DNA of 64,000 bases. Origin: Methanobrevibacter sp. YE315 (GTDB lineage: Archaea > Methanobacteriota > Methanobacteria > Methanobacteriales > Methanobacteriaceae). Within the stretch, counting starts at the first letter, position 1. Every line of letters starts with the position of its first letter. Location: contig NZ_CP010834.1 in the NCBI RefSeq assembly GCF_001548675.1, positions 1,337,501-1,401,500 of the forward strand. The letters are read 5' to 3'. Made by a program: the position numbers and the translations under genes. Below are positions 25,973 through 33,846 of the stretch, one piece after another. The notes under the pieces were generated by a model. The model was not told where the DNA came from. It worked only from the letters and a program-made list of their open reading frames with translations, and searched no databases.

Positions 25973-26590
25973 TTAACCTAAAACTCCAATAACAAACTCT
26001 GCAATAGGGATTGTCAAATATGCTTCAACAAATCCTGCAATTATTAATAAAATTACAGAAGTAACAAATAATATACATGCTTGTTTTAGTTTATCATAAC
26101 TGGAATCAAAAGAATTTGCCAATTTATTTTTAAAAGAACCATCTTCCTGAATCAATAATGCTTTCAAAAATTTATAAAGGAAGTTAAACAAAACAAAACC
26201 GCTGGCACAAGCCAAAGCACATGAAGACAATTCAAATATTCCATGAGGGATAATGTAAAGCAATACTTCAAATAAATTACCTGAGAAAGCCACATAATAG
26301 CCTACAAAAAAGCCATTAAATGACAATATCACTGCTGAAAAACAAAACAGCAATCCTAGAATAAACATTTCACAGATTATTTTGAAATTATTTAAGAAGA
26401 TATCAGCAAATGTTAATTTAACAACACCAGATTGGACCTTTTGAGTCAGGTCTTCAACAACGGGATTGAGATATTTGTAAAGATAGGGTTCAAAAAAGTA
26501 ACCAAGAACCATCGACACGATAAGAATGACTATTGCAATGTAGATGGCTCGCTTATTTTCAGTGAATGCCCGTTTGAATTCATTAAACAT
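25973..26590 (-). CDS. Stage II sporulation protein M-like membrane protein
   Basis: A 205-aa protein with about five membrane helices. IPHGIFELSSCALACASGF is the hallmark of the SpoIIM/DUF95 family. In archaea no sporulation occurs; the family is thought to act in membrane remodelling or peptidoglycan-like wall contexts, which is only an inference here. Its start overlaps the stop of trpS by one base (TAATG), so translation is coupled. Confidence 0.85.
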   Translation of the reverse strand: MFNEFKRAFTENKRAIYIAIVILIVSMVLGYFFEPYLYKYLNPVVEDLTQKVQSGVVKLTFADIFLNNFKIICEMFILGLLFCFSAVILSFNGFFVGYYVAFSGNLFEVLLYIIPHGIFELSSCALACASGFVLFNFLYKFLKALLIQEDGSFKNKLANSFDSSYDKLKQACILFVTSVILLIIAGFVEAYLTIPIAEFVIGVLG

Positions 26591-29251: not shown

Positions 29252-32200
29252 TTAGAATTCAATACTTGAAGTAATTGAATGTAATGAAAATGAATTTGTA
29301 TTCCAATTTACTACATTTCCAAATGAATTTCTTGAACTGGTCGGATCTGAGAGTGTCCACATATCACCAACTAAGATTTGAGCCCATACGTGACCATAAG
29401 TACTTCCACTACTGAAGTGGCATGTACCATGAACATATCTAGCAGGCAAACCAGCAGTTCTAGCCATAGCCACTAATAAATGTGCTTGATCAACACAATT
29501 TCCAGTTTTTGCATTTAATGTACCTACAGCACCGTACCTAGTATCATAATAGAAGGAATAACTAATGGAATCTCTTACATATTTATATAATGCATTAGCA
29601 ATATCATAATCTGAAGTTAATCCTTTAGTTAATGAATCAACTATATTCTTGATACTAGTGTTATTTACTTGACAGTTAGTAGTAGCCACTAAATATGGTT
29701 TCAAATTAGTGATTGTATTTTTCTCATTTAAACCAGTACCCTTTTCATCAACAGGATCAACGGATCCTCCTTCGGAGTAACGGACTGTTACATAGGTAGG
29801 TAATTCTTTATTACTTCCATAAAATGCTACGATACGTGCATATGCATCGACCAATTCTGTGAAGATAATGTTACCCACATCAGATGAAGCGAAGTTAGGT
29901 GCTTGATTATTCTTTTCAATGTAACTAGCTACATTTGAAGCAGTATTAACATATCCTGCTCTAGGCAAGGTTGCTGAACCAATTTCATCTCCAGATGGAG
30001 AATCTGGTGCCAAAATCTTAGTAACAAGAGGAACAGCTCCAGTATTGGATTCATCAAGTTGGCAAACGGCTTTAGTTAACAAGTACAAAAATTTCTGCAT
30101 TGTAACTTTTAAACTACCAACCTCTACTGAACTGGGTAATTTAGTATTTTTCTCATAGTAAGTTTTGATTACACCAGCAGCGGATATTATATCCTTAAGA
30201 GCTACTGTTTCACCAGAGGGAGGGACAGGCTCTGGACTGGGAGAAGGTCTTGAAGTAGGATTAACCTTAATAGAAGTTGGCAATTTATTATTTGCTTTAT
30301 ATGATGCTAAAACTCTAGCAAATGTATCAACTAAAGATTGATATTTAATTGTACCTACAGTTGAACTAGCATAATTTGGAGCTAGCTCATTATTTACAAT
30401 GAAGTTTGCTACTCTTTGTGCAACATCAACATAGTCTGCCTTAGATAAAGTTGCCTCATTACTGATTCCAGACGGATTTGCAGGAGCGGAAGCTGGGACT
30501 AAATCAATAGCCGAAGTCTTACCTTGATTAATATTAGCAACAGCTCTGGTCATTAAGTATAGGAATCTTGGCATAGAGTAATCTACTCCATCAATAGTAA
30601 CTTTTGTTGGAATGGAATCCACAGATTTGATATTGTTACTTAATGTAGTTGCAGCTGCTACAATCTTTGCAAGAGTTAATGAAGTTGAGGTATCACTATC
30701 ACCATCTATTGACTTAAAATCAATAAAGTTAGTTACACCCCATCTGAATACAACAACTCCTTTTGCTTTACCGTTTAATGCATTTTGCGCATCGGTTTTT
30801 AATTGGGAAACAGGTAATTTAGAAACATCATCATCAGATACATATCCTTGTAAACCTGACCAAATCACAGCACCATTTGAATTATCTACAAACCATTTGG
30901 TAGTTGTGGCAATCCATTTTGAATTTTGATTATAATTTCCTTTGTAAATCATTGGAATAATAACATCCATATATTTACTTAGTTGAGCATGGTCCTGACC
31001 GTAATAATAAACATTACTGGTAGTTTCCGGCATTACTGCACATGAAACTATAAGATTTGGATTAACAGCATGAATAGCACTAGCAGCTTGTTTTGCAAAT
31101 TGGGTAACAGCTGCAGCACCGCCACTAGTTTTATAAGCATTACCGGGATATCTTAAATAATCAAAGTGAATTCCTGCTACACCTTTAATTTTAGCATAAT
31201 TTTTTGCTTCATTAATCTTTGTATTGAAGTAAGCAGTGTTAGGTTGACCATTTTTAACTGGGTTTATCCATGAGCCGTCATAAAATGCTTGCATCCAAAT
31301 ATGAACATTGATTCCTACTTTGTTTGCACTTGCAATCCATGATTCAACACTTGATTGACCATGTTTGCTAATAGCTGCATAGTTTAAGAAAATATCAGTA
31401 GTTCCTTTAGATGCTAAACTGCCTAAATCGACATTTCTCATGTCTGCACCGAATACCCAATATCCGTATCCGCTAAGAGATTTTCTAGCAACTTTTATTG
31501 TAGTAGTACCTGTACGTCCGGAATAATTTGGATCACTAGTACCGTCAAACTTGTATGAAACAGTATAAGAACCAGCAGGAAGGTTTACATTGAATGTAGC
31601 AATACCCTCTGAATTAGTGATTGCAGTATAAGTATTGGAATTGACTGTCAAAGTAATAGATTTCTTAGCTATACCCACACCATTAGCAGTTTTCAATGCA
31701 ACTTTAAATTGTTGGGTTCCAGTATTGAAAGTAGTAGCACTCTTCCAAAGAATCCTGGTTTCAGCTTTCTGCTTAACAGTGACTTTAACTGTACCTGTAC
31801 GTCCGGAATAAGTCGAATCTTTAGTACCGTCAAACTTGTATGTAACAGTATAAGTACCAGCAGGAAGGTTTACATTGAATGTAGCAATACCCTCTGAATT
31901 AGTGGTTGCAGTATAAGTTTTTGATTTAACAGTCAAAGCAATGACTTTTTTAGCTATGCCTATACCTTCAGTATTTTTCAATGCAACTTTAAATTGTTGG
32001 GTTCCTGTATTGAAAGAAGTAGCACTCTTCCAAAGAATCCTAGTTTCTTTCTTCTTCTTAACAGTGACTTTTGTAGTACCGGTACGTCCAGAATAATCTT
32101 CATCACCAGCAGCACTGAACTTGTATGTAACAGTATATGTGCCTGCAGGAAGGTTTACATTGAATGTAGCAAAACCATTTGAATTAGTGGTTGCAGTATA

Positions 32201-33769
32201 AGTTTTAGAATTAACAGTCAAAGTAATTGTCTTTTTAGCAATACCCACACCGTCAGTATTTTTTAATGCAACTTTAAACTGTTGGGTTCCCACATCGAAA
32301 GTAGAATCGCTTTTCCAAATAATTCTAGTTTCAGCTCTCTCTTTGACAGTGACTACAGTATCACCAGTAACGGCCTTCATATCAGAGGTGCCGTTGAAAG
32401 AATATTTGATGGTGTGTCTACCAACATCCAAATTAATTGGTATGGATGCAATACCTTTACTATTGGTCTTAACTTTAATGAATGTTTGACCTTTAACAAT
32501 GAAATTAATATACTGATTTGAAATCGGTACATCACCAGAAGTCAATTTCACTGCAAATGAAGAACCTGATCCTTTACCAAACACAGTTTTTCCATCAACA
32601 TTGAGGGATAAAGTTTTGGTTGGAAGGAAATAAATTTTATTCTGAGCGCTAGATGCTCTGTAATGTTCATCGCCTGCAAAGGCATATGTTGCAACATATC
32701 CTCCGTTAGCTAATTTAGGTAAAGTGAATTTTGCAATACCGTTAGCATTAGTTTTTGCACTATATTTTTTTCCATCTACAGTTAAAGTAACTAATTTGCC
32801 TGTAGTGGGTGCATAACCGAAGGAATTGAGCAATTTAACTTGAACGTTAGCAGTATCGCCCGCATAGAATGCGTAAATATTGGTGACCAACTTAGTATCG
32901 ACATGATTATATACTTTAATAGTATTTTTCTTAGTCAAACCGTCGACATTATAAGAGGTCATAGTAAAAGTACCACCTGGGAGATTGGATAATGATTGTG
33001 TGGCCAAACCATTAGCATTGGTTTTTACAGTATATGTTTTACCATTGACATTAAACTTAACATTTTGATTAGCTATTGGTTTACCATTACTATCAACAAA
33101 TGTTGCTTCGAAACTCCTTGTATCAGCGTATACTTTAGATACGTCAGCAGCACTAATTGTAGATAAAATTTTAAATGTATTAGTTAATTTATAACCAGTT
33201 ACCGGATTTACTGAAATAATCTGATATGTTCCTGGTTTTTCGTGAATACCTAATGAAGCAATCCCTCTTGAATTTGTTTTTACGGTATGGTCAACACCAC
33301 ATGCAGTAATTTTAACATTTCTATTTGCTAAAACATTACCGTTACTGTCATAAAATGTTGCACTAAAAGGAGTGCTTCCCTTATAATATTTAGTAACATC
33401 TTTTGCTTTGATACTATCTGAAATACCTGAAGAAATTTTACCTTCACCAGAAGCAAAGGCAACCCCAATAGTATCATTTAAATCATTACTTTCCGAGTTA
33501 GTTGATAAAGTATTTGAATAATCAGATCCTAAAACTTCTTTACTTGATAGAGAAACTTTAGATGAATCATTATCAACATTTGAAACACTAGATACAGAAA
33601 GCACTGATGAATCAGCGATTTTCTCCATTGGGACTGAGACATCTGTTGTGTCATCTACTAAGTTAGCAGTATGCGAATCTGTAACACTTATCTCACTTGC
33701 TGAAACGGCACTGACTGACAACAATACAGTGAACACCATTAGCAATGTGAGTAATAATTGTTTGTTCAA
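29252..33769 (-). CDS. Modular surface protein: Ig-like repeats, glycoside-hydrolase-like barrel, pseudomurein-binding repeats and C71/transglutaminase-like peptidase
   Basis: A 1505-aa exported protein. A signal peptide (residues 1-24) precedes a Ser/Asp-rich region, seven Ig-like repeats (about 120-765), a TIM-barrel-like domain (about 766-1040) with GIHFDYLRYPG typical of GHL10-type putative glycosidases, four alternating pseudomurein-binding repeats (about 1045-1330), and a C-terminal papain-like domain. Its Cys (GNCVDQ, near 1425), His (YGHVWAQ) and Asp (LSDPTS) match the triad of the viral pseudomurein endoisopeptidases PeiW/PeiP (C71). It is therefore likely to bind and cut or remodel the cell wall; adhesion is an alternative. 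The start is a TTG preceded by GGAGGT. No C-terminal anchor is seen. Confidence 0.88.
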   Translation of the reverse strand: MNKQLLLTLLMVFTVLLSVSAVSASEISVTDSHTANLVDDTTDVSVPMEKIADSSVLSVSSVSNVDNDSSKVSLSSKEVLGSDYSNTLSTNSESNDLNDTIGVAFASGEGKISSGISDSIKAKDVTKYYKGSTPFSATFYDSNGNVLANRNVKITACGVDHTVKTNSRGIASLGIHEKPGTYQIISVNPVTGYKLTNTFKILSTISAADVSKVYADTRSFEATFVDSNGKPIANQNVKFNVNGKTYTVKTNANGLATQSLSNLPGGTFTMTSYNVDGLTKKNTIKVYNHVDTKLVTNIYAFYAGDTANVQVKLLNSFGYAPTTGKLVTLTVDGKKYSAKTNANGIAKFTLPKLANGGYVATYAFAGDEHYRASSAQNKIYFLPTKTLSLNVDGKTVFGKGSGSSFAVKLTSGDVPISNQYINFIVKGQTFIKVKTNSKGIASIPINLDVGRHTIKYSFNGTSDMKAVTGDTVVTVKERAETRIIWKSDSTFDVGTQQFKVALKNTDGVGIAKKTITLTVNSKTYTATTNSNGFATFNVNLPAGTYTVTYKFSAAGDEDYSGRTGTTKVTVKKKKETRILWKSATSFNTGTQQFKVALKNTEGIGIAKKVIALTVKSKTYTATTNSEGIATFNVNLPAGTYTVTYKFDGTKDSTYSGRTGTVKVTVKQKAETRILWKSATTFNTGTQQFKVALKTANGVGIAKKSITLTVNSNTYTAITNSEGIATFNVNLPAGSYTVSYKFDGTSDPNYSGRTGTTTIKVARKSLSGYGYWVFGADMRNVDLGSLASKGTTDIFLNYAAISKHGQSSVESWIASANKVGINVHIWMQAFYDGSWINPVKNGQPNTAYFNTKINEAKNYAKIKGVAGIHFDYLRYPGNAYKTSGGAAAVTQFAKQAASAIHAVNPNLIVSCAVMPETTSNVYYYGQDHAQLSKYMDVIIPMIYKGNYNQNSKWIATTTKWFVDNSNGAVIWSGLQGYVSDDDVSKLPVSQLKTDAQNALNGKAKGVVVFRWGVTNFIDFKSIDGDSDTSTSLTLAKIVAAATTLSNNIKSVDSIPTKVTIDGVDYSMPRFLYLMTRAVANINQGKTSAIDLVPASAPANPSGISNEATLSKADYVDVAQRVANFIVNNELAPNYASSTVGTIKYQSLVDTFARVLASYKANNKLPTSIKVNPTSRPSPSPEPVPPSGETVALKDIISAAGVIKTYYEKNTKLPSSVEVGSLKVTMQKFLYLLTKAVCQLDESNTGAVPLVTKILAPDSPSGDEIGSATLPRAGYVNTASNVASYIEKNNQAPNFASSDVGNIIFTELVDAYARIVAFYGSNKELPTYVTVRYSEGGSVDPVDEKGTGLNEKNTITNLKPYLVATTNCQVNNTSIKNIVDSLTKGLTSDYDIANALYKYVRDSISYSFYYDTRYGAVGTLNAKTGNCVDQAHLLVAMARTAGLPARYVHGTCHFSSGSTYGHVWAQILVGDMWTLSDPTSSRNSFGNVVNWNTNSFSLHSITSSIEF
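31480..32345. repeat. Three near-identical tandem repeats within the surface-protein gene
   Basis: Repeat units of about 285-291 bp encode Ig-like repeats 5, 6 and 7 (TRIxWKSxxxFxxGTQQFKVALK...). They are much closer to each other than to repeats 1-4, which points to recent duplication and a region prone to expansion or loss by recombination. Confidence 0.75.
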
Positions 33770-33846
33770 AATATTTTACCTCCATAACAATTGATAATAT
33801 AACCATGAGACTATTATCTCACTTCATCAATATTTATTTTAAATAT

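What the first reader, a model, noticed from the sequence alone, without database searches (positions are those of the whole stretch)
29252..33769. One protein joins Ig-like stalk, glycosidase-like barrel, pseudomurein-binding repeats and a C71-type peptidase
The C-terminal Cys-His-Asp arrangement plus pseudomurein-binding repeats recalls the phage lysins PeiW/PeiP, but here it is in a 1505-aa exported host protein that also carries a GHL10-like barrel. It could cut both peptide and sugar bonds of pseudomurein, acting as an autolysin, a weapon against other methanogens, or a cell-separation enzyme.
Basis: partly seen in the sequence, partly recalled or inferred. Interest (0 to 1): 0.65.

Follow-up and report, generated by a model that had tools for sequence, protein, structure and literature searches.

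The report
Methanogen's own two-bladed wall-cutting enzyme
This methanogen secretes a large protein that joins a sugar-cutting-type barrel, wall-gripping repeats and a peptide-cutting-type domain; the set is conserved across pseudomurein-walled methanogens and reused in lysis enzymes of their viruses, so it is probably the enzyme these archaea use to loosen or split their own wall, and could include the first known enzyme that cuts pseudomurein's sugar chains.

Summary
The ORF is real: 1505 aa, minus strand, TTG start with a ribosome-binding site, signal peptide, about six Ig-like domains, an eight-stranded TIM barrel (AlphaFold pLDDT 97), four alpha-beta-beta-alpha units of pseudomurein-binding repeats and a C-terminal transglutaminase-like (TG) domain with an intact Cys1425-His1460-Asp1475 triad. 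'C71-type' is only loosely right: the domain is PF01841 (81 bits) and misses the C71 cut-off (15.7 of 22; 20.3 alone). It is nevertheless a clear relative: the best fold match of repeats plus TG domain is PeiP. The barrel's nearest solved structures act on N-acetylhexosamine or cell-wall polymers (PgaB, Cwp19, SleL). The barrel occurs in every genus of the phylum that was searched; fused to the TG domain it reaches Methanothermus-like and Methanothermobacter-like genomes, and in Methanobrevibacter it sits at one conserved locus. The same barrel family, with pseudomurein-binding repeats and a C71 or other cysteine peptidase, forms the apparent lysin of methanogen viruses. Best reading: an endogenous bifunctional pseudomurein remodelling enzyme, not a weapon. 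Glycan cleavage is inferred, not shown. I found no report of a pseudomurein glycanase in the held library. The main rival is that the TG domain cross-links rather than cuts.

The parts
29252..33769 (-). whole gene, 1505 aa, TTG start
33779..33783 (-). ribosome-binding site GGAGG, 9 nt before the TTG start
   Evidence: upstream sequence
33695..33769 (-). signal peptide or N-terminal anchor, residues 1-25 (MNKQLLLTLLMVFTVLLSVSAVSAS)
   Evidence: read directly from the sequence; no predictor run
31484..33409 (-). Ig-like stalk, residues about 121-762
   Evidence: Pfam Big_1, Big_3_5; about three 285-bp DNA repeats at 31505-32354
30704..31480 (-). glycosidase-like TIM barrel, residues 764-1022
   Evidence: DUF4015; AlphaFold pLDDT 97.1, pTM 0.93, eight strands; Foldseek PgaB, Cwp19, SleL
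31160..31162 (-). Asp870, candidate catalytic acid at the end of beta4, in HFDYLRYPG
   Evidence: invariant in all 23 and 31 barrels
31025..31027 (-). Glu915, second candidate catalytic acid just after beta5, in AVMPE
   Evidence: invariant in A1, at least 90% in A2
29735..30682 (-). pseudomurein-binding region, residues 1030-1345, four alpha-beta-beta-alpha units
   Evidence: PMBR 86.4 bits; secondary structure of the model
29255..29734 (-). transglutaminase-like cysteine peptidase domain, residues 1346-1505
   Evidence: PF01841 87 bits; PeiP and PeiW matches
29495..29497 (-). Cys1425, predicted nucleophile (GNCVDQ)
   Evidence: invariant
29390..29392 (-). His1460 of the triad (YGHVW)
   Evidence: invariant
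29345..29347 (-). Asp1475 of the triad
   Evidence: invariant

Best explanation
It is an exported, housekeeping, bifunctional pseudomurein-remodelling enzyme of the archaeon itself. The pseudomurein-binding repeats hold it in the sacculus. The C-terminal Cys-His-Asp domain cuts cross-linking peptides, as PeiW and PeiP do. The TIM barrel cuts the glycan strand, using Asp870 with Glu915 or a neighbour. The Ig stalk, with the N-terminal anchor or signal, spaces the catalytic part across the wall. The likely use is wall expansion or daughter-cell separation, comparable to bacterial Atl or to DigH acting after peptides have been removed. Shown here: architecture, conservation, folds, synteny, viral reuse. 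Inferred: both activities, the bonds cut and the cellular role.
For: Architecture above Pfam cut-offs for Ig, DUF4015, PMBR and Transglut_core. The barrel model is very confident; its best PDB fold matches are PgaB, Cwp19 and SleL, and sequence-profile matches are GH18 and DUF4015-like proteins and Cwp19. Near-invariant residues concentrate at the C-terminal ends of the beta strands, where TIM-barrel active sites lie (18 of 38, 9.4 expected, p = 0.0008). The repeats-plus-TG model has PeiP as best fold match, E = 4.7e-10; the TG profile finds PeiW at 1.2e-6 and PeiP at 3.8e-6. Barrel found in 123 of 139 family genomes and all 17 genera, and in the two further families of the order and another of the class. 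In-frame barrel-TG fusion in 29 of the 30 best loci, and in Methanothermobacter-like and Methanothermus-like genomes; the Methanothermus-like genome has a single TG match and it is the fused protein. Syntenic between thermosome and DtxR-family genes across the genus. Viral contigs carry the same barrel family with PMBR and a peptidase-like part, with an integrase nearby; one provirus-like copy has an above-cut-off C71 domain, 44.1 bits.
Against: No activity data. GH18's catalytic Glu position is taken by an invariant Arg in the printed alignments, so the catalytic mechanism would differ from that of chitinases and is unproven. The TG domain scores far better as transglutaminase-like than as C71. 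In some groups (g12, g8, f2/g18) the barrels examined are on proteins without a TG domain. The PMBR+TG model is only moderately confident (pLDDT 75, pTM 0.41).
Confidence: 0.6

Rival explanations
1. The TG domain is a transpeptidase that forms the Glu-Lys cross-links of pseudomurein, and the barrel trims glycan or makes room for insertion; the protein is then a wall-synthesis enzyme rather than a hydrolase.
For: Leahy et al. (PMC2812497) and PMC11915815 propose exported transglutaminases as the cross-linkers; every one of 16 genomes tested has at least one such TG protein.
Against: Nearest solved relatives by profile are a putative cysteine protease and the lytic PeiW and PeiP; PeiP is the best fold match of repeats plus domain; viruses pair the same barrel family and PMBRs with lytic-type peptidases.
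Confidence: 0.22
2. It is mainly an adhesin-like protein: the barrel binds or trims glycans of partner microbes or the host, and PMBRs merely anchor it.
For: Ig stalk; adhesin-like protein catalogues list TG-type members with PMBR and one M. smithii protein with a putative glycosyl hydrolase domain (PMC11532034); extra Ig-barrel paralogues without TG exist.
Against: The fusion reaches thermophilic genomes with no Ig stalk (L073, L076); barrel and TG are conserved more than the stalk (about 70% against 50%); viral lysins use the barrel without a stalk.
Confidence: 0.12
3. It is a weapon against other methanogens, or a captured viral lysin.
For: Resemblance to lysins PeiW and PeiP; exported.
Against: Vertically inherited, one conserved locus between thermosome and DtxR genes; barrel in nearly all genomes; the tree nests the main viral clade among host barrels, so capture most likely went host to virus (support of the grouping 94/87, the viral clade itself 100/100).
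Confidence: 0.05

Closest known systems
Phage pseudomurein endoisopeptidases PeiW and PeiP (peptidase C71, PMC2989375)
   Same: PMBR followed by a Cys-His-Asp domain; PeiP is the best fold match; profile match to both
   Different: Host-encoded core gene, exported, PF01841 rather than C71 by score, adds Ig stalk and glycosidase-like barrel
PeiR of provirus phi-mru (PMC6189367)
   Same: PMBR plus a C-terminal cysteine peptidase acting on pseudomurein
   Different: PeiR is short and C39-type, described with two PMBRs and no barrel
Cwp19 (GHL10 lytic transglycosylase, PMC6016235) and DigH (PMC12288456)
   Same: Glycan-cutting enzymes acting on cell wall; Cwp19 is a fold match (5oq3) and weak sequence match; Asp-Tyr after beta4
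   Different: They act on bacterial peptidoglycan; identity to Cwp19 11-12%; GHL10 below cut-off here; DigH itself was not compared with this barrel
PgaB C-terminal domain and GH18 SleL
   Same: Among the best fold matches of the barrel; act on N-acetylglucosamine-containing polymers
   Different: About 11-12% identity; GH18 catalytic Glu not conserved in the barrel
Adhesin-like proteins, TG-type group III of M. smithii and M. stadtmanae (PMC11532034)
   Same: Ig-like domains, PMBR and C-terminal transglutaminase-like domain; one M. smithii protein listed with a putative glycosyl hydrolase domain
   Different: That paper catalogues them as adhesins and in the passages read does not propose a wall-cutting role
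Staphylococcal Atl (bifunctional autolysin, PMC7679415 abstract)
   Same: One protein with a glycan-cutting and a peptide-side-chain-cutting enzyme domain
   Different: Different domains and substrate; analogy only

Membership tests
Peptidase C71 (Pei) | Pfam PF12386 above cut-off of 22 bits | tested here: not met
   15.7 bits whole protein, 20.3 bits domain alone
Peptidase C71 (Pei) | Cys-His-Asp triad with PMBR upstream | tested here: met
Peptidase C71 (Pei) | Cleaves Ala-epsilon-Lys isopeptide bond of pseudomurein | not testable with these tools
   needs purified protein
Transglutaminase-like superfamily (PF01841) | Score above 23 bits and intact triad | tested here: met
   81 to 87 bits; invariant C, H, D
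Pseudomurein-binding repeat proteins (PF09373) | PMBR above 24.9 bits | tested here: met
   74.9 and 86.4 bits
Pseudomurein-binding repeat proteins (PF09373) | At least three motifs, as needed for binding by MTH719 (PMC3124540) | tested here: inconclusive
   Two stretches pass on their own, four structural units in the model; binding untested
DUF4015 (PF13200) putative glycosyl hydrolase | Score above 27 bits | tested here: met
   34.8 and 39.0 bits
GHL10 (PF02638) | Score above 27.9 bits | tested here: not met
   17.5 bits; a Methanothermus-like relative reaches 31.5
GH18 | Catalytic Glu of the DxxDxDxE motif | tested here: not met
   Arg873 aligns at that place in the printed alignment
Glycoside hydrolase-type TIM barrel fold | Eight alternating beta-alpha units with conserved residues at strand C-terminal ends | tested here: met
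Glycoside hydrolase-type TIM barrel fold | Catalytic groove with two carboxylates at suitable distance | not tested

The most novel reading that the evidence does not exclude
The barrel is the first pseudomurein glycan-cleaving enzyme, and the barrel-PMBR-TG protein is the long-missing endogenous wall hydrolase of pseudomurein archaea, ancestral to the group and taken up several times by their viruses as a two-activity lysin.
Probability: 0.4. Interest if true: 0.82.

Novelty: new variant of a known kind. Interest (0 to 1): 0.62.

Why it matters
How pseudomurein methanogens open their own wall to grow and divide is not known, and the enzymes described for lysing them in the laboratory are viral peptidases. 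A conserved host enzyme with a candidate glycan-cutting barrel makes wall turnover in these archaea directly testable, and the barrel would be a new tool for lysis, DNA extraction and transformation of methanogens.

Tried and rejected
Strict C71 assignment rejected on Pfam scores. GHL10 and GH18 membership rejected for the window barrel. Known phage records: no tblastn match to the barrel, so the viral evidence rests on IMG/VR contigs and one provirus-like locus. Foldseek against BFVD gave only generic glycosidase barrels. PHROGs named the barrel proteins L177 and L105 by their Pei and endolysin parts only, and found nothing for L172, L174 and L175. A viral scan with the TG domain gave only two partial loci, so viruses use the barrel but rarely this TG type.

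Full report
WHAT IS THERE. The window lies in a 2.27-Mb single-contig genome. The reported ORF is intact on the minus strand, 1505 aa, starting with TTG nine nucleotides after GGAGG. It begins with a hydrophobic signal or anchor, continues with about six Ig-like domains, three of which are close DNA repeats, then a DUF4015 barrel, pseudomurein-binding repeats and a transglutaminase-like domain.

THE C-TERMINAL DOMAIN. It is PF01841 at 81 bits and misses the C71 cut-off (20.3 of 22 for the domain alone). The triad Cys1425, His1460, Asp1475 is invariant in 14 sequences. A profile of these finds three solved structures only: a putative cysteine protease (3isr), PeiW and PeiP. A model of repeats plus domain (pLDDT 75) has PeiP as its best fold match with E = 4.7e-10 over 419 columns. 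So it is kin to Pei without being a member by the curated rule.

THE BARREL. With an alignment of 31 relatives AlphaFold gives pLDDT 97.1 and eight strands. Among the best PDB matches are PgaB, Cwp19 and SleL, enzymes of N-acetylhexosamine or wall polymers; Cwp19 is a peptidoglycan lytic transglycosylase (PMC6016235). Asp870 and Tyr871 are invariant, Glu915 nearly so, and near-invariant residues concentrate at the strand C-terminal ends. The GH18 catalytic Glu is replaced by Arg.

DISTRIBUTION. The barrel is found in 123 of 139 genomes of the family and all 17 genera, and with the Pfam model in the other families of the order and class. The in-frame barrel-TG fusion holds in 29 of the 30 best loci. 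It is also present in G149 and G139. G149 has the contig length (1,751,377) that PMC2812497 prints in its table of Methanobacteriales genomes, which I read as M. thermautotrophicus delta-H; G139 (1,243,342) matches what I recall for Methanothermus fervidus. Both identifications therefore rest partly on memory. G139 has one TG match only, in the fused protein. In groups g12, g8 and g18 the barrels examined lie on proteins without the TG domain. In Methanobrevibacter the gene sits between the thermosome and DtxR-family genes, followed by the tRNA endonuclease and further conserved neighbours. Barrel and TG domains are about 70% identical between close orthologues where the stalk and the PMBR region are about 50 and 45%.

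VIRUSES. A scan of viral contigs with the barrel alignment returned ten loci, eight of them at 37% identity or more. L172, L175 and L177 are barrel, PMBR and a C-terminal cysteine-peptidase-like part; L177 matches endolysin families. L105, on a Methanobrevibacter contig with virus-like neighbours, is barrel, PMBR and an above-cut-off C71 domain (its barrel does not reach the DUF4015 listing there but is 49% identical to the window's). The genes follow long virus-type ORFs and precede an integrase in L172 and L177. In the tree six viral barrels form one fully supported clade nested among Methanobrevibacter host barrels; L177 and the L178-L179 pair are placed elsewhere, so three changes are needed. 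Viruses appear to have taken the barrel from hosts for lysis, which is the strongest hint that its substrate is pseudomurein.

MECHANISM. I infer an own-wall remodelling enzyme: repeats bind, the TG domain cuts peptides, the barrel cuts glycan. DigH, which cuts denuded glycans after amidases (PMC12288456), and Atl are the functional analogues. The most serious rival is a cross-linking transglutaminase (PMC2812497, PMC11915815). The weapon idea has little support.

NOVELTY. The review PMC2989375 calls Pei the first enzyme known to hydrolyse pseudomurein, and searches for pseudomurein glycanases, autolysins and DUF4015 in methanogens returned nothing of the kind. Domain tables for M. smithii already list TG, PMBR and one putative glycosyl hydrolase domain among adhesin-like proteins, so the parts were annotated but, in what I read, not put together as a wall enzyme. 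The library holds open-licence papers only, so earlier reports elsewhere are possible.

Noticed in passing
L097:209-1183, L098:1005-1979, L099:5905-6717: A secreted barrel about 55% identical to the window's, in high-GC rumen bacterial MAGs (labelled Lentisphaerae, Verrucomicrobia, Coriobacteriaceae); gene GC3 0.76-0.85, so probably a real transfer from methanogens to bacteria, perhaps directed at methanogen walls.
   Followed up: partly
G000:C1:412461-412553 (L002) and 1789267-1789359 (L004): Two near-identical 272-280 aa ORFs in the window's own genome with a PMBR and a Pei-like C-terminal motif (GSNCVDWGQ...GHIRLRL), probably prophage lysins without a barrel.
   Followed up: partly
G000:C1:1664290-1665210 (L001, L006): A second host PMBR-TG protein (983 aa open frame, Ig-like repeats, no barrel) in the same genome, a likely redundant partner.
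   Followed up: partly
window 25973-26590 (-): SpoIIM-family membrane protein (82.6 bits) four genes downstream, kept in most syntenic loci; in bacteria SpoIIM belongs to a wall-hydrolase complex (own knowledge), so the nearness may or may not be meaningful.
   Followed up: partly
L076:8177-10384 and L085, L109 barrels: Some thermophile and Methanobacterium-like barrels carry an insert of about 60 residues rich in Tyr, Trp, Lys and Arg before the catalytic beta4 motif; function unknown.
   Followed up: no
L077:6936-10277 (-): A 1113-aa Methanothermobacter-type version holds near-identical PMBR blocks in tandem (12 PMBR stretches).
   Followed up: no
L072:9405-10616 and L073:9028-11295: The Methanothermus-like genome has two genes with almost identical barrels, one fused to PMBR-TG and one alone; looks like recent duplication or conversion.
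   Followed up: no
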